Positions 1 through 62,309 of a stretch of 64,000 nt of DNA are shown piece by piece. This DNA is from Phorcus lineatus (Eukaryota > Mollusca > Gastropoda > Trochida > Trochidae): NCBI GenBank assembly GCA_921293015.1, contig OV121081.1, positions 72,991,022-73,055,021 of the forward strand, given 5' to 3'. Position numbers and translations under genes: made by a program. Position 1 is the first letter of the stretch. Each line of letters begins with the position of its first letter. The notes beneath the pieces are model-generated. The model made no database searches. It was not told where the DNA came from and saw only the letters and a program-made list of their open reading frames with translations.

Positions 1-2493
1 TTACAGAAAGGTGGTTTCAGACTTACAAAATGGGTCTCAAATAGTAGAGATGTTTTGGATGTTATTCCTGGTGAAGAGAAGGCAAAGCAATTCAAGGATA
101 TAACTTTACAAGACAACTTACCACAAGAGAGAGCTATTGGCGTCACATGGAATACTGCATCTGATAAATTTGGATTCAAGGTTAAACCTAAGGAACGCCC
201 TTTCACTCTCAGAGGAGTTCTTAGTGTCACAAGCTCTTTATATGACCCCTTTGGTTTTATTAGTCCAGTTGTGCTAAAGGCAAAGTTGATATTCCAACAT
301 GAATGTCGATTGAAGAAGGGATGGGATGAAGTATTGGATCAGGTAAATACAGAGAGATGGATGAACTGGTTGAGCAAATTGCATCATATTGAAGATTTGA
401 CGATTCCTAGATGGTTGATGCCCTTTGACCTCTCTCAGATCGTCACTTGTGAACTGCATCACTTTTCAGACGCTTCCACTGTTGGATTTGGTGCTGTATC
501 TTATCTCAGAATGGTGTGTGACACTGGTGACATACTTTGCAGGATGCTTATGTCAAAGTCTAGACTGACACCACTCAAGACTCTTACAATTCCGCGATTA
601 GAGTTGTCGGCTGCCATCATATCAGTACAACTGGACCAGATTTTGCTTCGTGAGCTTACAGTACAAATTGACAGATCAGTCTTTTGGACAGATAGTACAG
701 TGGTGTTATATTACCTAAAAAACACATCTCAACGGTTTCAGACCTTAGTTGCCAATCGTGTCAGCAGGATTCTTGATAGTTCCTCAGTGGAAGACTGGCG
801 ACATGTTCCATCTCACCGCAGACCATGCTTCTAGAGGTTTGGATGCAGACAAGATAGGAGATTGCCAGGAGTGGTTTAGGGGTCCTGATTTCCTTTGGAA
901 GGAACATGAGTTATGGCCTGAGTGTCCTTTAACTTTTAAGCCATCTGCAGATCAAGTTGAATTCATAAAATCGAAGACTTGCTTAATGTCATCAGAGGAT
1001 CATGATAATCCAACATCTGTTTTCCTGGGGTATTACTCCTCATGGTACAAGTTGAATAAAGCAGTAAGCTGGATTTTGATGTTGAAAATTTTCCTGCTCC
1101 ATAAAGTCAGAAAATCTATATCTCCAAGTCTGTGCACTCCATTGACAGCCATGGAGCTAAAATCGTCTGAAAGAGAAGTTGTTAATTATCTCCAAAGGTG
1201 TCACTTCCCAGAAAGAATATATGATCTGACACATGGCAAGGATGTGAAGAAAACCAGTAAGATCTTCAATCGTGAACCGCAGGTTTGTGAAGATGGAATG
1301 ATAGTTGTTGATGGCCGCTTGAATAATGCATCAATATCAACAGAAATGAAACATGCAGCAATTCTACCCAAATGTAAGATTTCAGAGTTAATTGTTCGAC
1401 ATCATCATGAACTCCTAGGTCATTCTTGCAGAGAGCATGTATTGGCTACCATTCGTCAGAAGTACTGGCCTGTGAAAGGACGCAATTTAGTGAAGAAAGT
1501 CTTACAACAATGTGTGCATTGCAGGCGCTTTAGAGGACCTCTTTTAACTCAGAAAATGGCATCCTTGCCTAAAGACAGAGTCAAACCTGGTAAACCACCA
1601 TTTCCATCTCGTGGTGTTGATTGTTTCGGACCCTTCATTGTTAAACGAGGACGAGCATCAGTAAAGAGGTACGGGTGTCTCTTTACTTGTCTAGTTACAT
1701 GGGCAGTGCACATTGAGAAGTTGGATTCACTTGACACAGATTCTTTTATAAATGCCATGAGAAGATTTGAGGCTCGACGTGGATGCCAGAGTTGGTGCGA
1801 TCAGACAATGGCACTAACTTCACAGGAGCAGAAAGAAAATTACGAAAGGCTCTCACATCTTGGAACTGTTCAAAGGTCAATAACTACATGTTGCAAAAAG
1901 AAATAAATTGGATCTTTAACCCTCCATCCGCTTCCAACATGGGAGGGGTGTGGGAGCGACAGATTAGAACCGTGCGCAAGGTTTTGTCATCCCTGTTGGT
2001 TCATGATCAAGGTATTTGTGATGAAGATTTGTCAACGATTTTAAGTGAAGTTGAGTCTATAGTAAAGAGCAGGCCGATCACCTACATCTCTGATTCTGTC
2101 AAGGATGCTAAGCCACTGAGTCCAGATCATCTACTGTTGCTCCGGTCCAGTCAACCTTGTCCGCCAGGTGACTTCACTGTTCATGATATATACACTCGAC
2201 GTTGGAGACATGTGCAACATATTGTGGATGTATTTTGGAAAAGATGGATTAAAGAATACCTTCCAACAATTCAGTTGCGGAAGAAGTGGCATCAAGGAAA
2301 GCCAAAAGTGTCTGTTGGAGACATTGTTTTGATCATGAATGAGAGGACACCTAGAAAGCTGTGGCCTCTTGGACGTGTGGTACGGATTTTTCCAGGACAG
2401 GACGGACTTGTTCGGTCAGTGGAACTTAAAACGGCTTGGTCTGTTCTCATCTGTCCCATCCACAAGCTCTGTTTGCTCGAATCTACCTCATAA
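1..2493 (+). mobile_element. BEL/Pao LTR retrotransposon fossil, pol 3' part
   Basis: Old LTR-element copy whose 5' part lies outside the window. Parts seen in order: the end of the reverse transcriptase with the Pao-type linker and RNase H region (about 1-830), the integrase H2C2 zinc-binding domain (about 1400-1530, with the HH...CxxC arrangement), the integrase core (about 1600-2080, including the SDNGTNF motif) and the C-terminal DUF5641-type domain typical of BEL/Pao (about 2200-2480). It is on the plus strand. It is broken, with about two breaks in the visible part, so it is a fossil. Much of the protein is still easy to recognise, which suggests moderate rather than extreme age. The family call is firm from the integrase plus DUF5641 order. 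Confidence 0.9.
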
Positions 2494-3650: not shown

Positions 3651-3975
3651 TAACTTTTTTTGAAGCCTTGACATGTATATTATGCAAATTTGAGTGGTAA
3701 CAGTGTATAAACTCGGATGCAATGTGTTATTTTTACATATTTCCATGGGTACCCCCCTCAGCCACTTATTCTCTGAAGCATCACACCAAAAGGTGGATGT
3801 CCCCGTATCTTTGGTTCTAATTATCATAGAACCATAATCTTGGTATCTCATTGTATGTTTTGAAGGTCACTGAATCCATTGACAGACATTTCAGATAGCT
3901 ACCATGAGTCATTTGTACGAAAGTTTAGGTTTCCGTTACAAAAACACATCATTCATGACTTCGATCGGTAACAAT

Positions 3976-4575
3976 TCTATTTTCTCTTCTCTACAGTTAA
4001 TGTATATCATTTTACTTTACATTATTTGCACTGAAAGTAGAATTATGAGTACTTGTAACCCTTTTGTGTACTTATGTGTACTTATAACACACAAATTGAG
4101 TATCCAAAAGCAAACCAAGGGACCTACCGTTAATCTACTATCATTGAAATACACCAACTCGGCCTTGGAAAAAAACTATTTTCTCTTCTCTACAGTTAAT
4201 GTATATCATTTTTCTTTACATTATTTGCACTGAGAGTAGAATATGAGTACTTGTAACCCTTTTATGTACTTATTTGTACTTATAACACATACAAATTAAG
4301 TGTCCAAAAGCAAACCAAGGGACCTACCGTTAATCTACTATCATTAGAATACACCAACTCGGCCTTGGAAAAAAACTATTTTCTCTTCTCTACAGTTAAT
4401 GTATATCATTTTATTTTAGATTATTTGCTCTAAGAGTAGAATTATGAGTACTTGCAACTCTTTTGTGTACTTGTGTACTTATAACAATCCAGGTTAAGTG
4501 TCCAAAAGCAAACTAAGGGACCTACCATTAATCTACTATCATTGAAATAAACCAAATCAGCCTTGGAAAAAACTC
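3976..4575. repeat. Three 198-bp tandem units in the left foldback arm
   Basis: Each unit runs from a TTTTCTCTTCTCTACAG-like start through ACTTGTAACCCTTTTG and GGGACCTACC to CTCGGCCTTGGAAAA. The third unit is the most diverged. The right arm repeats the same unit about twice in inverse orientation. Confidence 0.85.
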
Positions 4576-5829: not shown

Positions 5830-7025
5830 ATATTTTCAAAAATTTTCTTGTCAGATCAAGTGGCTCTTAGGTTGTGCCATCATATTTGTTTGGTGAGGTT
5901 GGTGCCTTCATATGTGCATTTACTGGAAATCCATATCGTATTACATTCTCATATGATTAATCTCGATAATAAGGTTTCCGATATAAAAAATGTTGATAAA
6001 GTTTGCTGTCTGCAACTGAATGACTATTGCTGTGAAGATGAGTCAAACAATGTAACATGGACACTATCATGATACCATCAAAAGCCTAGCGTATCATACA
6101 ATGCATTTCAATTAGCAGGTGGCTCTATGGAAGACATCTCTGTTCCAATGCCTGTTGTTCTTGTTGCTAATTAGAGTCATAATTCGACTCTTGTGTCGAC
6201 TTAGTACCTATGTGTTATCTTTCTTCTTTGTACCCTTTAAATCTATCCCTTTAAATCCCCAATGATTTAGAAGTAAAACAACACATTCAAAAATACAAAA
6301 TTGTAAGTTTTTTCCAAGGCTGATTTGGTGTATTTCAATGATAGTGGATTAACGGTAGGTCCCTTGGTTTGCTTTTGGACACTTAATTTGTGTGTAATAA
6401 GTACACTTAAGTACACAAAAGGTTTACAAGTACTCATAATTCTATTCTCAGTGCAAATAATGTAAAATAAAATGATATACATTCACTTTAGAGAAGAGAA
6501 AATAGTTTTTTCCAAGGCCGAGTTGGTGTATTTCAATGATAGTAGATTAACGGTAGGTCCCTTGGTTTGCTTTTGGACACCTAATTTGTGTGTTATAAGT
6601 ATACAAAAGTACACAAAAGGGTTACAAGTACTCATAACTCTACCTTCAGTGCAAATAATGTAAAATAAAATGATATACATTAACTGTAGAGAAGAGAAAA
6701 TAGAATTGTTACCGATCGAAGTCATGAATGATGTGTTTTTGTAACGGAAACCTAAACTTTCGTACAAATGACTCATGGTAGCTATCTGAAATGTCTGTCA
6801 ATGGATTCAGTGACCTTCTAAACATACAATTAGATACCAAGATTATGGTTCTATGATAATTAGAACCAAAGATACGGGGACATCCACCTTTTGGTGTGAT
6901 GCTTCAGAGAATAAGTGGCTGAGGGGGGTACCCATGGAAATATGTAAAAATAACACATTGCATCCCAGTTTATACACTGTTACCACTCAAATGTGCTTAA
7001 AAGACATGCCAAGGCTTAAAAAAAA

Positions 7026-9952: not shown

Positions 9953-10456
9953 AATGGGGAAAAAACTTGTCTTGGATAATATTTTAATTTAAATCTGTAT
10001 TCTATGATTACAATCTCGCACATCAAGCAACGATATCAAACTTACACGTTTTTCTTTGCATTGAAAAAAGTTCAGTACTTTCCTATTCGAGGTCTCAGAC
10101 ACTAATAATAAGGATTCCATAATTTACTGAAATATATTGATACTCCATTTTTTAAAATTCAAATATAGATTTATGAACTTTGTCAGATGTGAGATGTTAA
10201 AGATGAACAATGATGTATTCCTAAATTCAAAATTCATTAAGCTTTTTGAGGAAGTTCTATATCAATATTCATCCTGTCTCAGGGTAAGACGTATAGCTGA
10301 AGCTCCACTCTTCTTACCCTGGGTGTAAATCCCTGCATAAATTTCGCACCGTGACCTAAGACCAACGAACTTTCTAAACAAAATCAACCAATGACTGCGC
10401 TTGAAATGCCAGTCGGCAATTTATTTTGGCGGCGTCCATCCCTTCGAAAATCAAAC

Positions 10457-10778: not shown

Positions 10779-11054
10779 GAAAATCAAACAGATTCTTAAA
10801 CACTGGATGTATGATTTGTTGTAATAATCTGAACAGAATCGCAAAATTTGACTCGGAGTAAAGCACAATCGTGGATCGGTTAAAAAACTATCGGTTCCAT
10901 GTTGTTTACCTGTGGACGTCGACATTTACCGGAAGAGTGAAAGCCTACTGGAGTTGGAGAGGTTTTCCTGGGTTGGCTGATATTTAATCGCACACCATCG
11001 CAATAAAAGTATTTGATTGGCTGAATCATAGGCCATGACGCGAAGTTAATACTG

Positions 11055-11117
11055 GGGTTTACACCCAGGGTAAGAAGAGTGAAGCGTTAGCTATACGTCT
11101 TCCCCTGAGACAGGATG
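11055..11117. repeat. Right terminal inverted repeat of the MULE-like MITE
   Basis: Inverse of 10,270-10,332. It differs by a few bases (for example GTGAAGCG against GCTTCAGC in reverse). Confidence 0.8.
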
Positions 11118-12153
11118 ATCAATATTCTCTAAAAGAGTGACTTGAAAATACGCAGTGTGCTATGTTTTCAGCAGTGTGACTACAAAATTGCTCTCAATAA
11201 CTTGCAAACCTCTCTATCGTCTCCTTCAAGTTGCACTATCAGCCTTATTACATTGAACCTTATTTCACAAGTTGACAACGGCGTCCGCTGATATGAAAAC
11301 AGGTCATGTGCAGACTAAGGTCTACATTTGAAAACGAATGAAGTATCAAAAACATAGCTGTGTTACATCGATGTGTATAGATTATAACCATTTGTGTTTT
11401 GTCAGTGTTTCTTTGGGAATAATGTTGCTATGCAATTACGAGGCTTAATAAATGCAGTGTTGACAAAACTGAAAGTTGTCACGAAAAAATCATTCAATTA
11501 TGCCCATTTCGCTAGGTGATGGTACTGATCTCGCCAGAAGACTCATAAAGAAAATTGCTGTCAATCTAACACAGGAAAAGAATCTATCCTACACGCTGAA
11601 CTTGAGTTCTTCATGTTATTGCAAGTATTTGTTACCTGTTCCCTTTTCAATAAACAGTAATATTAATGAATTTTAATGGAATTTACGATTTGGCAACTTT
11701 GTAATGGAAAACGCTAAGTTCGGTTTTATAACATATTCATAATTCTTTATGTTTTTTTAACGTCTGCATGTAGGTTGCGAAATGTCAAAGGACAAATCTC
11801 TTAACAAAGTTGTCATATTCTGTAATCCTCTTGAATAACAGAAGCCATTGGCACACTGCAACTACTCTACATTCAGATTTAAATAATGTAGAACGGTTTT
11901 GACTAAAAGAAAATATGCAAGCCGTCTGGTTTGACTCGAAGCAAATATGTTTGACATCAACTCAAATCAATGATAGCTGATACCAAAGTTTCCAACTCTA
12001 ACTTCCGTGAACTTGACGTAGCGTAATAAAGCACTAATATCTCATAAGAATGTCTATTCAAAACTCAAAAGCATCCCATATGTCAAACATAAAATGAGCT
12101 TGAACAACCTCCAGAACATAAATACTAGAAACAGAAATAACATGATTTGAGTG

Positions 12154-16495: not shown

Positions 16496-18010
16496 AGCTC
16501 ATCAGGTCTGAAAGACCCGATGGGCTTATGGCATGGCAAGGCGTCCGGCGTCCGTCCGTCCGTCCGTCCATTCGTCCATCCGTAAACTTTTCACTTTTTC
16601 GACTTCTTCTCCAGAACCAATGACTCTAGAGAGCTGAAATTTTATGTGAATACTCCTTGGCAAATAGGGATTCTAAATTGTAGATTTCGTGACCCCATGA
16701 CCCCAAATGGGGTCACAAGGGTCAAAACCTTAAAAATCTATTTTAATCTTCTTCTCCAGTTCCAAAAGGTCCAGAGAGCTGAAAAGTTGTGTGTAGACTC
16801 CTTGGGCACTGGAAATTCTAAATTGTAGGTTTGGTGACCCCATGACCCCAAATGGGGTCACAGGGGTCAAAACCTGAAAAACCTAATTTCATCTTCTTCT
16901 CCAGTTCCAAAAGGTCTAGAGAGCTGAAATGGTATGTGTAGACTCCTTGGCCAACGGGGATTCTAAATTGTAGGTTTGGTGACCCCATGACCCCAAATGG
17001 GGTCACAGGGGTCAAAACCTAAAAAACCTAATTTCATCTTTTTCCTTAGTTCCAAAAGGTCTAGAGAACTGAAAAGGTGTGTGTAGACTCCTTGGCCAAC
17101 GGGGATTCTAAATTGTAGGTTTGGTGACCCCATGACGCCAAATGGGGTCACAGGGGTCAAAACCTAAAAAAACTAATTTCATCTTTTTCCCTAGTTCCAA
17201 AAGGTCCAGAGAGCTGAAAAGTTGTGTGTAGACTCCTTGGGCACTGGGGATTCTAAATTGTAGATTTTGTGACCCCATGACCCCAAATGGAGTCACAGGG
17301 GTCAAACATGAAAAACCTATTTTCATCTTCTTCTCCAGTTCCAAAAGGTCCAGAGAGCTGAATAGTTGTGTGTAGACTCCTTGGGCATTGGAGATTCTAA
17401 ATTGTAGGTTTGGTGACCCCATGACCCGCAATGGGGTCACAGGGGTCAAAACCTGAAAAACCTAATTTCATCTTCTTCTCCAGTTCCAAAAGGTCTAGAG
17501 AGCTGAAAAGGTGTGTGTAGACTCCTTGGCCAACGGGGATTCTAAATTGTAGGTTTGGTGACTCCATGACCCCAAATGGGGTCACAGGGGTCAAAACCTA
17601 AAAAACCTAATTTAATCTTTTTCCCTAGTTCCAAAAGGTCTAGAGAGCTGAAAAGGTGTGTGTAGACTCCTTGGCCAACGGGGATTCTAAATTGTAGGTT
17701 TGGTGACCCCATGACGCCAAATGGGGTCACAGGGGTCAAAACCTAAAAAAACTAATTTCATCTCTTTCCCTAGTTCCAAAAGGTCTAGAGAGCTGAAAAA
17801 TTGTGTGAAGACTCCTTGAACACTTGGGATTCTAAATTGTAGGTTTGGTGACCACTTGACCCCAAATGGGGTCACAAAATCCTACGCTCATCTTCTTCTC
17901 CAGTTCCAAAAGGTCTTGATAGCTTAATAGTTGTGTGTAGACTCCTTGGACAATGGGGATTCTGAATGGTAATTTCGGTGACCCCTTGACCCCAAATGGG
18001 CAATGGACCT
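16496..18010. repeat. 145-bp minisatellite array with GTCCGTCC leader
   Basis: About nine to ten tandem units of 145 bp, with unit steps near 16,818, 16,963, 17,108, 17,253, 17,397, 17,542, 17,687 and 17,832. Each unit has a TTCCAAAAGGTC box, a GACTCCTTGG box, ATTCTAAATTGTAG and a G-rich/C-rich palindrome GTGACCCC...GGGGTCAC. The leader (16,496-16,600) contains CATCAGGTCTGAAAGACCCG and four or five GTCC repeats. The unit is not a multiple of three, so frames shift in every unit and the array is not coding. Confidence 0.93.
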
Positions 18011-28939: not shown

Positions 28940-31900
28940 CAGGGTTGTCAAAAAGAATTTAAGTAGAAGGCAATATTGCTTTAGTAGAAGGCACCCAAAC
29001 TGCGAGTTTGGCCGACGGCCGGAGGCCGGAGCAGGGGAGAGCACGAGAGGGGGCATTGCCCCCGCTCGTTGGTGGGGGTCCGGGGGGCCTCCCCCGGGAA
29101 TTTTTTTAAAAATGGATGCTGTTATATGCAATTTCAGGCCCTCTTTTTGTGATTTTCCTGACATTTAGCACCTGAATAAATAGTCATTTTTTAATATTGA
29201 TAAAATAATTCCATTTTTTTCTCTCTTTTACAGACAGTGTGACTGGAGTAAAAATGAAGACTTGAACACTGGTGTTTTAAATTGATGTCAACTTTTAATG
29301 ACAGTAAATGAGAAAATATTGAATAATAGAATCACACAATTTCATTCCGGATAAAACCTACTCTTGTCATATCACAGTAAAAACAAATCCTGTAACTTTA
29401 GTAGTAAAAAAGTTAACAGAGAAATGATGTTGTAAGTGATATTTCATTACTAACCAATCTTCAGGATCAGAATTATCTACAACAAGTAATCATTTTCAAA
29501 AACATAATAATAGGTTATTAGCACTAACATTTCTACAAGCTATGGAGTGAAGTATTTCATTACATGATAATGCACATTTTGAGAATGTTTACTGTTTTAA
29601 TTCTTTGAATTTTCAGTCTAGTTGAGCTCACAAAAATGATGTTGTAAGTGACATTTCATTACTAACCAATCTTCAGGATCAGAATTATTCAAATCTACAA
29701 CAAGTTATCATTTTCAATAACATAATAATAGCACTAACATTTCTACAAGCTATGGAGTAAAGTATTTCACTACATAATAATGCACATTTTGAGACTGCAA
29801 GCACATATCAGTATGACTCAGTCAAATTCATCATAGTCGCTTTCAAAAGCAGAATCACTGTCACTCTCTGGTGACAGACCGATGGAAACAGCAGCTGCTA
29901 TTTCCTCCTGTTCTTGCAGAAGAACTTGTACTGGGTCAGCATCAAGGCAGACTTCTTCCAATACATGATGTCCAGCATTGTCCTCTGTTTCATTTTCTAC
30001 AAGTGTAGGCTTGGTTGTAACAGTTTCCCTTCCTTTCCTTTTCAGCTTCTTCCGGCGCTTTTCTTTCAACCAGGATGTGACAGCCTTGTTGACAGTGTCT
30101 GTGCTGGATTCGGAGGATGGTCCATTGATTGCCACATGCATGAGGGAATTCAGCATGTCATTGTTGAGTCTGTTCCTTGACTTGGTCTTTGTGATTTTCA
30201 GGATGCTAGCCCCTCTCTCTGGCCAGGCATTGCTGCATGGAAGACACAAACCAACTTCCACAACATACAGCAGCTCCTCAAATAAATCTGGATGGAATAT
30301 TCCCTTGTTCTTGACAATAAAGCTCATAACATAGGTACTGCTTTGACATCCATCTGGCACTTTCAAGGACTTCTGTGAAAGAAAATATTTCACCTGGTTC
30401 CACTGAGACTTCAGTTTGGAAATTCTTTCATTTTCTTCATGGTAGAAGTGCTTTCCAAGTACTTCGATTTCTTCCATACCATATGGGCCTAGGTCATCAT
30501 CTGGCAAGGAATGTGGATCAAACACAGCATATGCACTGATGACTTCAGGAAACGATCCCAGTCTTCCCTCCATGTTTGATGACAACGCATCTGTGTACTT
30601 GCCAAGTAAAGATGCCAGCTCCTTCTCTGTGTTCTTCGTCATTCTAAGGGTGTCGGAGACGTGGGTGTACTTGGAGTCGATGTCACTTTTCAATTTCTCC
30701 AGTGGGTCCATGCTTTCCTTTACTTCCAGCAACTCTGCTTGAACTCTCCTCACTGCTGGTTTCACCATTGAAAAGTGAAATCTTCCTGCTTGAAACTGCT
30801 GAGAGAGCCTGGAGAGGATGGGAAGAATGGCATTCAAAATATACAGAGTCCCTAGGAATTTCACTTCTCTCATTTTCATCAGGAGACCAAGGCCTGTGGC
30901 ATCCTCAAGTTGCTGTAGAGTTAACACAATAGCTTCAAAGTCGCGAACTGCGGCACTCACTGAAGCTCCAAAACTCAACCAACGAGTCTGACATGCCTTT
31001 TGTAGACGTCTGGATAGCAGTTTCTCAGATTTCTTGGGGTTTGACAGATGTACACTGTTTAGTGCCAACTGGCATTTCAAGAAGCATGCCATCTTCTTGG
31101 GGGAATTCTTGAAATAATACCATAGTTGGCGAAGGGTATCTTCCACTCCTCTGATGACTTTCAGATCATTACAGCTGTCGGTACATGCCAATGCTAGTCG
31201 ATGACATACACAATGAATGTTTAACAGTTTTCCATTTTTTTCACGGAGTTTGGCTGCCACACCATTTGCCTTGCCAAGCATGACACTTGCTCCATCGGTC
31301 GACAAGCCCATAAGGTTTCCAACATCTAGCCCTGCTTCATCTAGGTCTTTCAGCACCAGCGTTTTGATGGCATCTGCATTGCAGGATTCAAAGTCCTCAA
31401 GAACATTTTGTGCTGACATAAAAGATATTTCACATTTCTGTGTCTCAGTGTCCCAGTACTGAATGAATGTTACAAGTTGAGAGCATACTGCTATGTCGGT
31501 CACTTCATCTATCATGATTCCATAGGCCTTGGCCTGTCTTACTCTGTCCACAACATCGAGCCTCACAGTGTGACCCACGGTCAAAAATATTTCCCGTATG
31601 GAACCTGTTGATGTGTGGTTAAAGTACTGCAACCTTGATACACCTATTACATTCTTCATGAACTTCAAAAGCGAAAGCAATTTGCGGTTGGCAACAAATT
31701 CTTTCATCATCCAATATATGGTGGAAAATACATCATTCAGAACTTTGGTCTCCACTTCATTTCTCTCAACAGTCACTTGGTGAAATACAGAGAGCCTTTG
31801 CATGAGGTCTGCATCAATAGCCGCAAGATGATTGCTGGATGACATGTGCTTCTTAATGGAATCTTCTTTCAAACGTATGGAAGGCTGTTGAATAAATATC

Positions 31901-34381
31901 TGGCTTTTGTTTTGAGAATTTTTCATGTTGTGTTTTTTGCACAGCATGCAAAAAAATCCCTGTCCCTCAACATAGCAGATCGACCAATATTTTGGACTTG
32001 CTAGCCATTCATGTTTGAACTTGTCAGGCTTCTTTTTCTCTTTTATTTTTAATTCTTCTAGCTTTCGAAGGCGAGACTTTTCATCGGTGGACAGCGAAAA
32101 GCAAGTTGATTTGCACTTGAAGTAGTTGTGAAGATTCTCAGATGGCCACATTGGTTGAATGGTTGACAACGCTTCTTCGTCAGACCAGAGGACTGGTTGT
32201 GGATTACCTGAAATAAAAATTATTACATGAACACCATGTCAACAGAAAAACATCTTCATTAAATGGAAATGTAACCACACATTCTCCCCAATTTAATTGA
32301 TGAATTAATTTGATTGTGCTTGCTTTATGATGATTCTAACCTGAAGTCGACTGGTTAACTTGGCTTGGAGGGATAGACTCTGGCTCGTCACGAGTGGTAC
32401 CGGGACGAGGAGGGACTGACTTCGACTCATCATGGGAAGGACCAAGAGTAGCAGTGGAATCTGTGCCAGTTTCTGAAAATAAGATTTCAAATTATTCTTA
32501 AGAAAAGTTCCAGTTCCATGGAAACCGCCAAAATTTTAAAATTTCAGAATATTGAAAACACCAAAAGGCACAACTACATGTGAAGATCTGTCAATATACC
32601 AATTTTTATGAAGCTCACGGTTTCCGAGTTCTGCCCCGGAAACGATTTGATCATGGACAGACGGACGGACAGACTACATGTATATCTCCCTGCATTATAT
32701 GTCAGGAGGATAATAAATGGTGAACATGGGGATATACCTGAATAAGTTTCTTTACTTCCGGCCACAGACTTCGTCACAGATGTGGAGACAGATTCATCAT
32801 CAGCAACTCTGTTTTCTAGAAAAATATATATTTACAGTTACTTACTGTAATTATTTCTAAACAGCAAGGACATGACTCTATAAAATATATTTTATCTAAT
32901 TTTATAATATTATAATGTCCAATTAATACACATGATGACATTACATGAAACGAAACATAGAACTTAATTTGAAATTATATAGCCATGATATTTATTTGGT
33001 TCCTATTACACAAAGTTATGTGCTAATAAACTTTAACATCATGGTTTAACTATAGAATAAGAAGTAGTTTGTATCCAACACCCAAGAAATGAGAACAGAA
33101 AAGATATATTGAGTAGGATGGTAAATCAAAGCCATATGATAGAAAGCAGACTAATAAACTGACAGGCGAAAGAAAGTATAACACTCATTTGTTTACAATT
33201 AATTCAATAGTTTACAGAAATGAGATGCATTTGATTATGGCACGATACAATAACCCCTATCCCCTATCCCCTATAGTTTGAATGACTTATTTAAATCATT
33301 ATTCAAAGTAGACAGGGGGTAAAAAACGAAAATTACACCAACAGCCCCTATCATATTCAAAATGTTGTAAATGTGTGCAGGATGAAGCATATGATAAATA
33401 CAAATGAGCCATATACTTTCTTTTGCCCATCAGTGTCACTGTATTAATAGCAGAAAGTAAATGTAATGAAAAATGAAAACATGCACCTCAATATACTAAT
33501 GTCATACCATCACCATCACTATTATTAAATTACTTACAGACAAATATGCTGGAACAAAGTAAAAGGAAACAAAAATATACAAATAAATCAAGGAAACAAA
33601 AATATTTATATATAAATAAATTTTTATGTTTTGCAAAACGAAAATGAAAAACGAAAATAAAATAATTCTTGTCGAAAAATATTGTCATTTACGTATTACT
33701 ATTCTCAAAACGAAATAATTCATGTTTGTATTGCAAGCTGGAACTAATTTCGCTATATATGCTCATTTTATTAAAAATATATTCAATATTGATGTAAACA
33801 TGACCTACGTGTTTCAACCATGAAATGAATTTGCTGAATAAGAAATATAAATGCGTGAAAATAGCAGGAGCAGGCCATATTCTTTCGAATCGGCTTATTA
33901 TAAGCTCATCCGCTATGAATACGTACCTTGAATAGGCTTTTCTGTCGATGAGACTGGCTGGAAAAAGACATCTAACATTCGTTGCCGCTTCCCAGGCGCC
34001 ATTTTGAAGGAAAGCGCAATGCATTGTGGGTTACATGCTTACCTCCCTTGTGAAACTGGTTCTCCTTTGGACTTGCGCAGCCAGCTTAGCGCGGTTAGCC
34101 AACTCTTTAGCGAAGGCAGGAACCCAGTCTTACGAAATTTATCACTCAACATCGGGAGATACGTCAATATTTGTCAGAAATGTCCGAAGGGATAACGGTG
34201 TTGTTGATATTCGCACAATCGCAACGATATTAGATTTAGATTGGCGAGAATTAGTCAAGGCAGGGAAATCAATATTTACTTTTTGAACTATTAAAAAATG
34301 GTTTGTATTTGATTTGTAGACGGCGACAACATGTGAGTAGGCGGCGATATCGCCGGTCGCCGCCGTATTTTGACAACCCTG
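28940..34381 (-). mobile_element. hAT DNA transposon, apparently complete
   Basis: 5442 bp with perfect 14-bp terminal inverted repeats CAGGGTTGTCAAAA (28,940-28,953) and TTTTGACAACCCTG (34,368-34,381). The flanking 8-mers ATAATGAT and TTAATGTT agree at six of eight positions, compatible with a decayed 8-bp duplication, the hAT hallmark. It contains a four-exon transposase gene on the minus strand. The left subterminal part is very GC-rich (29,010-29,100, with CCCCCGGG-type palindromes) and the right subterminal part has GGCGGCGATATCGCCG. It sits inside the 10.3-kb element, so it arrived later. Confidence 0.85.
29818..34002 (-). CDS. hAT transposase, ZNF862-like, four exons, 891 aa
   Basis: Exons on the minus strand are 34,002-33,927, 32,815-32,738, 32,472-32,341 and 32,207-29,818. 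All three junctions have GT/AG and the same phase 1, and the joined frame is open for 891 codons. The start [14 protein letters not shown] is typical of these proteins. In full-length numbering there is a TTF/BED-like zinc finger (C182, C185, H216, H222), a transposase core with D329 (IMIDEVTD) and D400 (LSTDGASVM), the [10 protein letters not shown] box, QTRWLS, and the C-terminal dimerisation region with [10 protein letters not shown] (E759) and an INGP end. D, D and E are all present, so it could be active. It would cut and paste DNA at hAT ends in the nucleus. The tail is acidic ([15 protein letters not shown]). Introns are 1111, 265 and 133 nt. Related domesticated host genes exist (ZNF862, C17orf113), but the flanking hAT ends argue for a resident transposon. 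Confidence 0.88.
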
Positions 34382-57754: not shown

Positions 57755-57906
57755 TGGTAAACTCTTAAGAGAGGGATTGTGTCAATCAGAAGACCAACAA
57801 GGAAGAACCATGACGTCACCTGATTAGCATAATTTACAATATATCCTTGTACATTGTACGTATATTTTGTTATAAAAACGCTTGTAATGCGATGTTAACG
57901 ATCATA

Positions 57907-57966
57907 TCGTTTCATCCCTGATGAGTCAATACTATTGACGAAATACTAGTATCGGATTAAAATGAT
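57907..57966 (+). ncRNA. Hammerhead ribozyme, left copy
   Basis: The core box CTGATGA (57,918-57,924) is followed by stem II, GTCAAT and ATTGAC closing on ACT, and the GAAA box (57,940-57,943). Stem III is ATAC/GTAT with a two-base TA loop, ending in T57,952 and C57,953, the expected cleavage position. Stem I pairs ATCC (57,914-57,917) with GGAT (57,954-57,957) and, past a mismatch, TTT with AAA. All invariant core bases are present. A very short stem III is usual in animal retrozyme and Penelope hammerheads, which often act as dimers. Confidence 0.8.
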
Positions 57967-58662
57967 TCTGCAAACGACTATGTGAAGTATGTTATATTTA
58001 ATCTATATGTGACCTTGCGTTTGAACCAATTCAACTTTTCATATATATATATATATATATTTCATTTATTTCATTTATATTTATTTCATTTACATCAGTA
58101 ATAACAGCCAAGAAAACGATACTAGTTATTCTTTGAATAAGTTGAATGAAACAATGCCAGCTCATTAACCTCTTTCTCATATCCAAAAACTCAAATGAAT
58201 TACTCACGGAATGAATCTCAGCTTGAACCCCGAATTCGCTTTTAAGAAAATGATCATTTACCTTGAACAAATAAAACTGTCCGGTATCTGTACCGAGACC
58301 ACCCATTACCTCATTACTTACCATATAAAAATATACATTAACATTCCGGAACCAACACAACAGTCTAAGATTTATGATGCACACAAGCTAATACAAGTGG
58401 ATGTTGGTTTTGGGCCTGAGAAAGTAAGATTCCTTTCAAACACGTATCCATGGATAATTCAACTTTGGAAAATTAAGACAATGTTAAAATTACATAACTG
58501 TTGCAGGCAATGTTTAATATTTCAGATTTCTTATGAATCTGAAAACACATGCTATTTTGGAAAATTATTACCGTAAGAATGAAACAGAACCATTTGCAAC
58601 AGTCATCAACGGACAAAGGAAAATTGATTTAGATCACAGTTAATCATGTCTCAACATGCAAC

Positions 58663-58664
<2 letters not shown>

Positions 58665-58738
<74 letters not shown>
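58665..58738. repeat. (TA)n then (GA)n microsatellite
   Basis: About 28 TA units run into about nine GA units, ending at the right arm of the ribozyme element. Shorter TA runs are at 57,726-57,752 and 58,040-58,060. Confidence 0.95.
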
Positions 58739-58739
<1 letters not shown>

Positions 58740-58775
58740 TTAAATATAACATACTTCACATAGTCGTTTGAAGAA

Positions 58776-58835
58776 TCATTTTAATCCGATACTAGTATTT
58801 CGTCAATAGTATTGACTCATCAGGGATGAAACGAT
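58776..58835 (-). ncRNA. Hammerhead ribozyme, right copy, opposite strand
   Basis: The same core lies on the minus strand: CTGATGA as the inverse of 58,817-58,823, stem II and GAAA to its left, and stem III with the cleavage C around 58,788. The core is identical to the left copy. The two ribozymes would be transcribed toward each other. Confidence 0.8.
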
Positions 58836-59022
58836 ATGTATCATCATTATTATCATTATATATATATGTGTGTGTGTGTAATGGTGACAAATGTGACATG
58901 AATACGCAATTATATCATGCTGGTACCGACCCTGAAAGTTCAATGTTCTGAGTCATATGAAAATGAGTAATTCTTGTTCAACGTGCCAATTGAATTGGCT
59001 GGCATGTTAAAATTGTGTACAA

Positions 59023-59273
59023 AATGAAGGATGTCAGTTCTGAAGTAGATACATTGTTGAAACTCTGTTTTGTGGAACTTGTGTAATTTGTGATTCGTTA
59101 TATGGTCTAGCTAACTTCTGTTAACATTTGTCAAAATCACATATTGGATGTGTTGCATTTGGATTGACAAGGACAAGGATGTCAGTTCTGAAGTAGATAC
59201 CTTGTTGAAACTCTGTTTTGTGGAACTTGTGTAATTTGTGATTCGTTATATGGTCTAGCTAACTTCTGTTAAC
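59023..59273. repeat. 152-bp local tandem duplication split by a LINE
   Basis: Unit 1 (59,023-59,174) and unit 2 (59,175-59,273, resuming at 62,262-62,306) share GGATGTCAGTTCTGAAG through GTGTTGCATTTGGATTGAC with very few differences. Confidence 0.9.
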
Positions 59274-62248
59274 TTCTGCTAATGATTAGAGGAAATACGA
59301 TCTCATACTCATCTGCTAAAAAGAAAGAGCGAGAAAAAGAAGAAAAGGATTTGAACGATAACTAAAATAAGAAAACTATAGAACTCGATACTTCCTTAGA
59401 TGAGAAAACTAAACTGGTCATTCTACATGAAATTGAAAATTTAAATGCAAAAATAGAAGAACTAACCCTTGTAAAAACTAGAGGTATGGTTATAAGATCA
59501 AGAGCAATTTGGGGAGAAAGCGGAGAAAAACCGTCAAAGTATTTCCTTAACTTAGAGGCGAGAAATTTCATTAACAAGTCTTTTATGCGTATTGAAACCA
59601 AGAATGGAAATATTGTGACAACTCATCAGGAAATAAAACACGAAGTCAAAGCTTTCTACGAAAAACTATATAGTTGGCAAGATGTATCAACCGTCGATTT
59701 ACCAAAGCTTTTAGATAAATTTGACATTCCAAAACTATCAGATCAAACAGCTAAAACACTTGAAGGGGAACTCTCTTACGAAGAGGTTCTTTCTGCTGTT
59801 AAATCCCTTAAAAATGAAAAAAGTCCAGGACCCGATGGTTTTACTGCAGAATTTATCAAATTTTTTGGCTTGATTTAGGCAAATATCTTATACTCTGCTT
59901 GAACGAATCCTATAGAAAAGGTATGCTACCAATATCGCAAAAAAGAGGGGTTATCACTTGCATTCCTAAAGGAAACAAACCTAAACAATTCGTTAAAAAT
60001 TGGAGACCTATTTCTCTTCTTTCTGTTTTCTATAAGATTGGATCCTTGGCAATATCTAAAAGAATTAAAAGCGTTCTTGACAACATTATAAACGAAGAAC
60101 AAAAAGGATTTATGGCAGGAAGACATATTGGTGAAATCACAAGACTTGTATATGACTTGATAGAATATACAGAGAGCTATCAGATACCTGGATTATTACT
60201 TCTTATAGATTTTGAAAAGGCTTTTGACACTGTGGACTGGAATTTTCTAGATAAAACCCTTCAATTCTTTAATTTCGGAAACGCAATAAGAAACTGGGTG
60301 AAAACTTTTTATAATGATATTGAAACCTGCATATTGGTTAACGGATTTGGCTCTGATTTCTTCAAAATTTCAAGGGGATGTCGTCAGGGAGATTCCTTAT
60401 CCCCTTACTTGTTTATATTATGTGTTGAAATATTAGCTAATATGATTAGAAATGACCCAAATATAAAAGGCATACAAATTGATAATATTGAGTATCTATT
60501 GGCACAATTTGCCGATGACACTACCTGTATGCTTGATGGCACTGAGCGTTGTCTGTATGCTGTTATGCAAACACTAGAACAATTTGCACGTTTCTCAGGA
60601 TTGAAAGTTAATGTTGACAAGACTAGGATTTTGTGGTTGGGATCAAAGAAACGTTCTAGAATGAAGCTGTGCCCTCAGTGGAAATTAAATTGGGACCAAG
60701 ATTCATTTACATTACTGGGAATCCATTTTAGTTTAGATCTTGACGATATGACCAAAATGAATTATGATGAAAAGCTCCTAAAATGTCAAACAATAATGAA
60801 CTTATGGTCGGCCAGAAATCTCACTCCTTTCGGCAGAAACACAGTACTAAAATCACTTATTCTTCCAAAACTAAACCACCTCTTTTCAACAATCCCAGAC
60901 CCACCGGAAAAAATCATTAATGATTTTCAAAGTAAATGCTTCAAATTCATATGGAAAAATAAACCCGATAAAATAAAGAGAGGCCAGGCCATATGTAGTT
61001 CAAAAGACGGAGGTTTCAAAGTTCCTAAGATAAAAGAGATAATCCAAGCCCAAAAACTGTCCGTTCTGAGACGTTACTATAAAAAGCCAACACTTTGGGC
61101 GAACTTAATCGATCAAAACTTACCAAAAATAAACTCCTTAAGCATCTTAGAATTAAACTGTTATCATTTGAAGAATGAAATCATCTCAAACATCAGAAAC
61201 CCGTTCTATATAGACCTAGTCTCATCCTGGTTTGACTTTATAAAACATATTACACCTCAATCGGAAACAGACATTCTAAATCAAACAATCTGGCATAACC
61301 GCAACATTATGATTGGAAATAAATCCATTCATTACTCAGATTGGAACTCGAAAGGAATTCACTTTATAAATGATCTCTTTGACAAAAATGGCTCCTTTCT
61401 AGAACTGAAAGACCTAAACAAACAACACGATATGAACACAAACTTCATTCTATATTATGGCTTGATACAAGCAACAAAAACATATATAAAATCAACTGGA
61501 TACTCAGTAAAGGAAAGGTTAAATTCCCCAATTTTCCCTCTTTTTATAAAACATCTCTGCAAAGAAAACAAAGGATCCAGATATTATTATTCAATTCTCA
61601 CAGAGAAACAATGCATCAAAAACAAACATACTAACAAGTGGAATTTCGAATTACAGTGCAACGTTCCTGTCGAAACATGGTCCAAATACAACATGATACC
61701 TTTCAGATGCACTTCCCATACAAATATTCAATGGTTCCAATACAAAATCCTGCACCATATCTTGCCAACAAATACTCGCTTATACAAAATGGGATATACA
61801 AAATCAAATCTATGCGACTATTGTTCAGACAAAATAGATACAGTTCAACATTTATTCTGGGATTGTGTTTTTGTGAAACCATTATGGGAAAAACTGGAAG
61901 ATTGGCTCTCAGACAAAGCTCAAATTAAAATTCATTTCACTAAAGCAAATATATTAATTGGTTATCCGGAGAGAAACAATGATCCATTAAACATAATTAT
62001 CCTGATTTTCAAAAAAACTATTTTTGATTATAAACAGAAGAGACTGCCAGACTTCCAAACTTTAATAACAAAAGTCAGAGATTATTATTATATAACTAAA
62101 TGTGCTGCCGAAATTTCAAATAGAAATGATGTGTTCTTTAAGTTTTGGTCATCATGTCATTTTTTGTTTATGTAATTATCTTGTGTGATTGATACATGTA
62201 TATATTCTTGGAAATAAAACTATAAATAAAAAAAAACACAAAAAAAAC
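59274..62248 (+). mobile_element. 5'-truncated LINE, Tx1/L1-like
   Basis: Flanked by a perfect 13-bp target duplication AACTTCTGTTAAC (59,261-59,273 and 62,249-62,261). It ends in an A-rich tail after AATAAA (62,214). ORF1 and the endonuclease are missing, as is usual for 5'-truncated insertions. Unit 1 of the neighbouring tandem repeat gives the uninterrupted target sequence. Confidence 0.92.
59282..62175 (+). pseudogene. LINE reverse transcriptase (ORF2, C-terminal part)
   Basis: The frame opens with MIRGNTISYSSAKKK, the linker after the endonuclease in L1/Tx1 proteins. It has one in-frame TAA near 59,363 and one -1 shift in a T run near 59,865 (six T where seven would keep the frame). The 758-codon stretch from 59,899 has the reverse transcriptase boxes: NWRPISLLSVFYKI, the catalytic DFEKAFD (residues 104-110), RGCRQGDSLSP (159-169), FADD (204-207) and GLKVNVDKT, then the thumb and a C-terminal zinc knuckle (CDYCSDKIDTVQHLFWDC). 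The protein would copy element RNA onto a nicked target. With only two lesions the insertion is fairly recent. The clade call (Tx1 group of L1) is by motif likeness. Confidence 0.88.
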
Positions 62249-62309
62249 AACTTCTGTTAACATTTGTCAAAATCACATATTGGATGTGTTGCATTTGGAT
62301 TGACATCTA

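What the first reader, a model, noticed from the sequence alone, without database searches (positions are those of the whole stretch)
57902..58840. Pair of hammerhead ribozymes in inverted repeats
Both 100-bp arms fold into a hammerhead with every invariant core base (CTGATGA, GAAA, T-C at the cleavage site) and stems I, II and III. Known animal hammerheads sit in Penelope-like elements and retrozymes, usually as direct repeats. Here they face each other across about 830 bp that lacks a recognisable reverse transcriptase. A transcript through the whole element would carry only one active sense copy per strand, and the arms could also pair with each other, which would compete with ribozyme folding.
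Basis: partly seen in the sequence, partly recalled or inferred. Interest (0 to 1): 0.85.

Follow-up and report, generated by a model that had tools for sequence, protein, structure and literature searches.

The report
Two self-cutting RNAs facing each other
A short stretch of probably animal DNA ends in two nearly identical mirror-image arms, each encoding a hammerhead-type self-cutting RNA; it is most likely a small passenger of a known class of jumping elements, in a layout that is unusual for the ribozymes but known for Penelope elements.

Summary
Two 102-bp arms (57903-58004, 58737-58838; 101 of 102 bases alike, inverted, 732 bp apart) each carry a complete type I hammerhead, cleavage predicted after C57953 (+) and C58788 (-). 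A covariance model from 50 viral-contig and prokaryote hammerheads, none from this window, finds both arms at 34 bits, E 5.3e-9 in 64 kb; next best 10.4 bits. A structural descriptor hits only these two places, and 1 place in 400 random windows. Rfam's type I model matches full length but below cut-off (19.3 against 34 bits). The fold is weak: not the energy minimum, no better than shuffles, and less stable than at least 95% of 101 comparison hammerheads. Self-cleavage is predicted, not shown. The two longest interior ORFs match no Pfam family, no adjacent target duplication was seen, and no copy elsewhere could be fetched. Best reading: a non-autonomous Penelope-type element with inverted hammerhead ends, cut from read-through transcripts of either strand. 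A new variant of a known kind, of modest interest, resting on one locus.

The parts
57903..58004 (+). left arm of the inverted repeat, 102 bp
   Evidence: 101 of 102 bases identical to the reverse complement of the right arm
57906..57966 (+). type I hammerhead (outermost helix I pair 57906-57966), predicted cleavage 57953/57954
   Evidence: sub-threshold RF00163 match
57918..57943 (+). catalytic core CTGATGA, stem II (6 bp), GAAA
57943..57952 (+). stem III strand ATACTAGTAT, a perfect 10-nt palindrome that could form a longer stem III between two molecules
   Evidence: 125 such palindromes other than (AT)n occur in the window, so not rare by itself
58005..58736 (.). interior, 732 bp, 29.6% GC; two longest ORFs match no Pfam family; 58087-58640 has no second copy in the window
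58666..58736 (.). (TA)28 followed by (GA)n at the inner edge of the right arm
58737..58838 (-). right arm of the inverted repeat, 102 bp
58775..58835 (-). second type I hammerhead, minus strand, predicted cleavage after C58788 (helix I limits taken from the left arm by symmetry)
58839..58879 (.). AT-rich simple sequence just outside the right arm, a kind of target reported for Penelope elements
   Evidence: preference from PMC3846280 section 11

Best explanation
A roughly 936-bp non-autonomous retroelement of the Penelope/retrozyme sphere whose ends are inverted, head-to-head copies of a hammerhead-bearing terminal repeat. Read-through transcription from either side makes one sense hammerhead first; it cleaves after C57953 (or C58788 on the other strand) and sets the 5' end of the element RNA before the complementary far arm exists. 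The freed RNA then pairs what is left of its first arm with the far arm, leaving a 51-nt 3' overhang. A Penelope-type reverse transcriptase acting in trans copies it, and the inverted arms allow self-priming or template jumping that restores the 51 nt lost by cleavage. Shown here by sequence: arms, hammerhead architecture, predicted cleavage position, no Pfam match in the two longest interior ORFs. Inferred: cleavage itself, trans-mobilisation, restoration by self-priming.
For: Hammerhead model hits both arms at E 5.3e-9; descriptor specificity. Outer arm ends lie 3 nt outside helix I, so the repeat ends where the ribozyme ends. Helix I runs 7 bp beyond the internal loop; 265 of 50,000 flank shuffles and 1,006 of 50,000 window places do as well. 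Penelope elements with inverted pLTRs, non-coding cargo between solo pLTRs, and a self-priming proposal for head-to-head repeats are in PMC3846280. PLE pLTRs carry type I hammerheads (PMC7761336 passages). The right arm sits in AT-rich simple sequence.
Against: No Penelope protein domain found, but only the two longest interior ORFs were scanned. No adjacent target duplication: 5-bp flank matches (ATCAT, TTATA) are out of register, and the bases touching the arms (GAT left, TAT right) match over one base only. pLTRs in PMC3846280 are about 180-220 bp, these arms 102 bp. PLE hammerheads usually lack helix III; this one has 3-4 bp. Weak fold: -6.6 kcal/mol with all of helix I (minimum -9.3); -2.7 with the trimming used for controls, which cuts its outer helix I, against a 5% quantile of -8.3 in 101 controls; 4.4 above its minimum. 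In longer nascent transcripts helix I pairing probability falls to about 0, and stem III is at most 0.01 in all eight lengths tried. In a PLE studied in vitro, cleavage was not needed for insertion and no RNA-seq ends were seen at the site (PMC11167929 passages). One locus only.
Confidence: 0.5

Rival explanations
1. Two independent insertions of a short solo hammerhead repeat (solo pLTR or retrozyme fragment) that landed in opposite orientation 732 bp apart; the stretch between is host DNA.
For: Dispersed hammerhead motifs and solo pLTRs are described (PMC7761336 passages, PMC3846280 section 9); the two longest interior ORFs match nothing in Pfam.
Against: No duplication of 5 bp or more beside the left copy (a 2-bp AT match by eye) and only (AT)n matches, off the arm ends, beside the right one. 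Two unlinked copies would have to be almost identical (101 of 102).
Confidence: 0.22
2. A DNA transposon of MITE type whose terminal inverted repeats contain, or have adopted, a hammerhead.
For: TIR-like geometry, no recognised coding, and a similar-sized inverted pair elsewhere in the window (10269-10361/11026-11118, span 849).
Against: No adjacent target duplication; no transposase in the two interior ORFs scanned; the other inverted pair has no hammerhead hit. The listings of three literature searches showed no such case.
Confidence: 0.13
3. A local inverted duplication (replication or repair template switch) of one existing hammerhead repeat, without mobility.
For: Arms 101 of 102 alike and close together, with (AT)n runs nearby.
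Against: The outer arm end coincides with the ribozyme end, which a random switch would not favour.
Confidence: 0.1
4. Assembly artefact: an inverted join at a long AT repeat.
For: A (TA)28 run lies next to the right arm.
Against: The arms differ by one base and have different outer flanks. No reads could be checked.
Confidence: 0.04
5. Chance resemblance to a hammerhead.
For: No Rfam match at gathering score; arms fold no better than shuffles; weak fold.
Against: E 5.3e-9 in each arm with an outside model; 1 hit in 400 random windows; a viral-contig hammerhead taken as control (L001) also stays below its best Rfam cut-off (21.5 against 48.5 bits).
Confidence: 0.01

Closest known systems
Penelope-like elements with inverted pLTRs (Adineta vaga Pen2, Pen2a, Pen3a; PMC3846280, passages and sections 9 and 11)
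   Same: Terminal repeats in inverted orientation; non-coding or foreign sequence can lie between pLTRs; AT-rich targets. PLE pLTRs in other taxa carry type I hammerheads (PMC7761336 passages).
   Different: No RT-endonuclease ORF found, arms about half as long, no clear target duplication, helix III present. Whether those rotifer pLTRs carry hammerheads was not checked.
Metazoan non-LTR retrozymes (PMC7229834, part 1, section 14 and passages)
   Same: AT-rich, no known coding, type I hammerhead with short stem III; palindromic stem III loops are described for amphibian ones.
   Different: Retrozymes are direct repeats of about 170-400 nt in tandem; here two inverted copies and no tandem unit.
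Plant LTR retrozymes (PMC4918200 seen in search listings only; features from PMC7761336 passages and the PMC7229834 figure legend)
   Same: Two hammerheads in terminal repeats, about 600-1000 bp apart.
   Different: Plant ones are direct LTRs of about 350 bp, type III hammerheads, GC above 55%, 4-bp duplications.
Hammerheads of viral contigs and prokaryote genomes fetched here
   Same: Same core and topology; 50 of them make model R1.
   Different: More stable stems and an unrelated setting; 1 of 241 stretches held has matches on both strands, about 4.3 kb apart.

Membership tests
Hammerhead ribozyme, type I | Conserved core and three helices with helix I open | tested here: met
Hammerhead ribozyme, type I | Rfam RF00163 gathering score (a database cut-off) | tested here: not met
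   19.3 bits against 34, though over model positions 1-45 of 45; control L001 also fails its best family's cut-off
Hammerhead ribozyme, type I | Self-cleavage | not testable with these tools
   needs in vitro transcription; predicted fold is weak
Penelope-like element | RT plus GIY-YIG endonuclease ORF | tested here: not met
   no Pfam family in the two longest interior ORFs; only a non-autonomous derivative remains possible
Penelope-like element | Terminal repeats, direct or inverted, that carry a hammerhead | tested here: met
   layout documented in PMC3846280. That the arms descend from a pLTR was not testable: no pLTR sequence was at hand
Penelope-like element | Target-site duplication (8-10 bp, or absent, in PMC3846280) | tested here: inconclusive
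   only 5-bp out-of-register matches
Metazoan retrozyme | Direct tandem repeats of about 170-400 nt | tested here: not met
   arm occurs twice in the window, inverted
Metazoan retrozyme | Circular RNA of the monomer | not testable with these tools
   no RNA data
DNA transposon (MITE) | TIRs with an adjacent target duplication | tested here: not met
   TIR-like arms present; no adjacent duplication

The most novel reading that the evidence does not exclude
A family of miniature inverted-repeat elements that use a hammerhead at each end, one per strand, to cut themselves out of read-through transcripts in both directions, and use the arm-arm hairpin, rather than direct LTRs or circular RNA, to rebuild the lost end during reverse transcription.
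Probability: 0.15. Interest if true: 0.75.

Novelty: new variant of a known kind. Interest (0 to 1): 0.42.

Why it matters
The role of hammerheads in Penelope-like elements is called unknown, with dimeric cleavage of tandem copies as a proposal (PMC7761336 passages). An inverted pair cannot make a dimer within one transcript, so this layout would separate monomer 5'-end processing from tandem-dimer models, if other copies exist and keep the core intact.

Tried and rejected
Rfam gathering scan of the window: no hits. E-value scan of 1,051 bp: mostly AT-repeat noise and a misplaced Hammerhead_3 match. Own-genome search: no genome held, so the count of direct against inverted copies could not be done. 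Exact arm-core pattern in viral contigs: 0; a looser one gave 3 viral contigs and 0 genome contigs. tRNA scan: 0, bacterial settings. A possible extra core at 59621-59637 (D11) is no hammerhead: the overlapping model hit 59540-59635 has 7.1 bits, E 0.57. A loose hit at 31710 (-) lies inside an ORF and was not pursued. A reading in which cleavage splits each arm into 51 + 51 nt, the second half a hairpin, was not relied on: 15 and 9 of 200 shuffles fold as well, 25.6% of 3,000 random 51-mers are as stable. Covariation in the comparison set is no evidence, as its members were filtered for pairing. Loop-loop tertiary contacts were not tested.

Literature: I read listings (titles, abstract starts) of searches (10 of 10; 25 of 33; 20 of 35; 5 of 5; 20 of 71; 2 of 2; 10 of 47; 10 of 14), and passages or sections of eight papers. 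None of this showed a non-coding element with a hammerhead in each inverted arm; the library holds open-licence papers only. Cervera and de la Pena 2014, Lunse 2017 and Craig 2021 are not held and were not read. Passages of PMC6431247, PMC8490949 and PMC6155905 were seen and add background only.

Full report
Observation. The window (64 kb, 34% GC) holds inverted 102-bp arms, 57903-58004 and 58737-58838, 101 of 102 bases alike and 732 bp apart. Each has CTGATGA, a 6-bp stem II, GAAA, a 3-4 bp stem III and C17, with stem I of 4 bp, a 1x2 internal loop and 7 more bp. Predicted cleavage follows C57953 (+) and C58788 (-). The outer arm ends lie 3 nt outside stem I.

Is it more than chance? The bare core pattern is weak evidence (9 matches, 4.83 expected, 7 of 100 shuffles reach 9). 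The full descriptor hits both arms and nothing else in the window, and 1 distinct place in 400 random windows; its thresholds were chosen after seeing the motif. With one core mismatch allowed, one more place appears, 31710 (-). Rfam alone would not have called it: nothing at gathering score, 19.3 bits against 34 for RF00163 in each arm over the model's full length. As a control, a viral-contig hammerhead with a clean core (L001) also stays below its best cut-off (21.5 against 48.5); only this one control was run. I therefore built model R1 from 50 hammerheads, picked by hand from 101 that passed filters among 241 fetched stretches. It scores both arms at 34 bits, E 5.3e-9, full length; the next match has 10.4 bits, E 0.84. 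Caveats: those loci were picked with the same canonical GTC/GAC core, and filtered for pairing, so the covariation is not independent evidence; E-values of the model are rough.

Against easy activity. The arms fold no better than dinucleotide shuffles (z -0.14, -0.03, -0.07, -0.66). The hammerhead is not the minimum: -6.6 against -9.3 kcal/mol; with longer transcripts the gap runs between 2.7 and 7.6, helix I pairing falls to about 0 from 57990 on, and stem III is at most 0.01 throughout. Trimmed as the controls were, it has -2.7 kcal/mol, less stable than at least 95% of 101 (5% quantile -8.3); the trimming removes its outer helix I, but the full -6.6 is also weaker than that quantile. 88% of the controls fold within 0.5 kcal/mol of their minimum. 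Nearest-neighbour energies leave out tertiary contacts, which were not tested. The stem III strand ATACTAGTAT is a perfect palindrome, which would allow a long shared stem III between two RNAs, the way weak animal hammerheads act as dimers (PMC7229834 passages; PMC6155905 passages). In the inverted layout that can only happen between molecules.

Surroundings. The interior has 29.6% GC; its two longest ORFs match no Pfam family. The arms, and 58087-58640, have no further copy in the window. Flanks show no adjacent duplication under the single-element or solo-copy models. A LINE-type ORF with RVT_1 and zf-RVT lies at 59818-62175; that it is not a Penelope element is my reading of these domains, recalled, not tested.

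Mechanism. The arm-arm duplex is worth -165 kcal/mol and beats the ribozyme at equilibrium. The second arm starts 784 nt after the cleavage site, so cleavage can come first (inference). After cleavage the predicted structure pairs 50 of 51 positions of the remaining first arm with the far arm and leaves a 51-nt 3' overhang. Restoration of the missing 51 nt by self-priming is my proposal, modelled on the self-priming discussed for head-to-head Penelope repeats (PMC3846280 section 11).

Comparison. Penelope elements bounded by inverted pLTRs, and unrelated or non-coding sequence captured between pLTRs, are documented (PMC3846280; PMC8969392 passages). Type I hammerheads in PLE pLTRs and in retrozymes are documented (PMC7761336 passages; PMC7229834 part 1, section 14 and passages). 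In a PLE studied in vitro, hammerhead cleavage was not needed for insertion and no RNA-seq ends at the site were found (PMC11167929 passages). The locus thus combines known pieces: it works like a hammerhead-ended Penelope derivative, but is not filed as a Penelope element because no RT-endonuclease ORF was found, nor as a retrozyme because the repeats are not direct. Verdict: real sequence feature, new variant of a known kind, modest interest, one locus.

Noticed in passing
window 59113-59169 and 62249-62305: A LINE-type ORF (59818-62175, RVT_1 and zf-RVT) lies between two identical 57-bp direct repeats; a 99-bp tandem duplication 148 bp apart lies upstream (59027-59125 / 59175-59273).
   Followed up: partly
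window 3655-4374 and 6308-7025: Long inverted repeat, 95% identical over 721 columns, overlapping about 200-bp tandem repeats: a candidate larger inverted-repeat element.
   Followed up: no
window 10269-10361 and 11026-11118: Another inverted pair of similar size (93 bp, 85%, span 849) without a hammerhead hit.
   Followed up: partly
window 1-1903: Pao-type retrotransposon remains: Peptidase_A17 in the first ORF, Integrase_H2C2 in the next; the ORF at 1771-2493 was not scanned.
   Followed up: no
window 29818-32238 (-): 806-aa open frame with weak zf-C17orf113 and hAT dimerisation matches, both below Pfam cut-offs.
   Followed up: no
window 16603-18000: Tandem array of about 10 copies of a 145-bp unit.
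   Followed up: no
L097 (five matches), L081 (three matches): Fetched contigs with several hammerhead matches on one strand, about 0.5 to 2 kb apart; 9 of 241 stretches have more than one match on the same strand.
   Followed up: no
L001:12801-12870: A hammerhead with a clean core in a viral contig scores below the gathering cut-offs of the hammerhead families listed for it, so Rfam cut-offs can miss hammerheads.
   Followed up: partly
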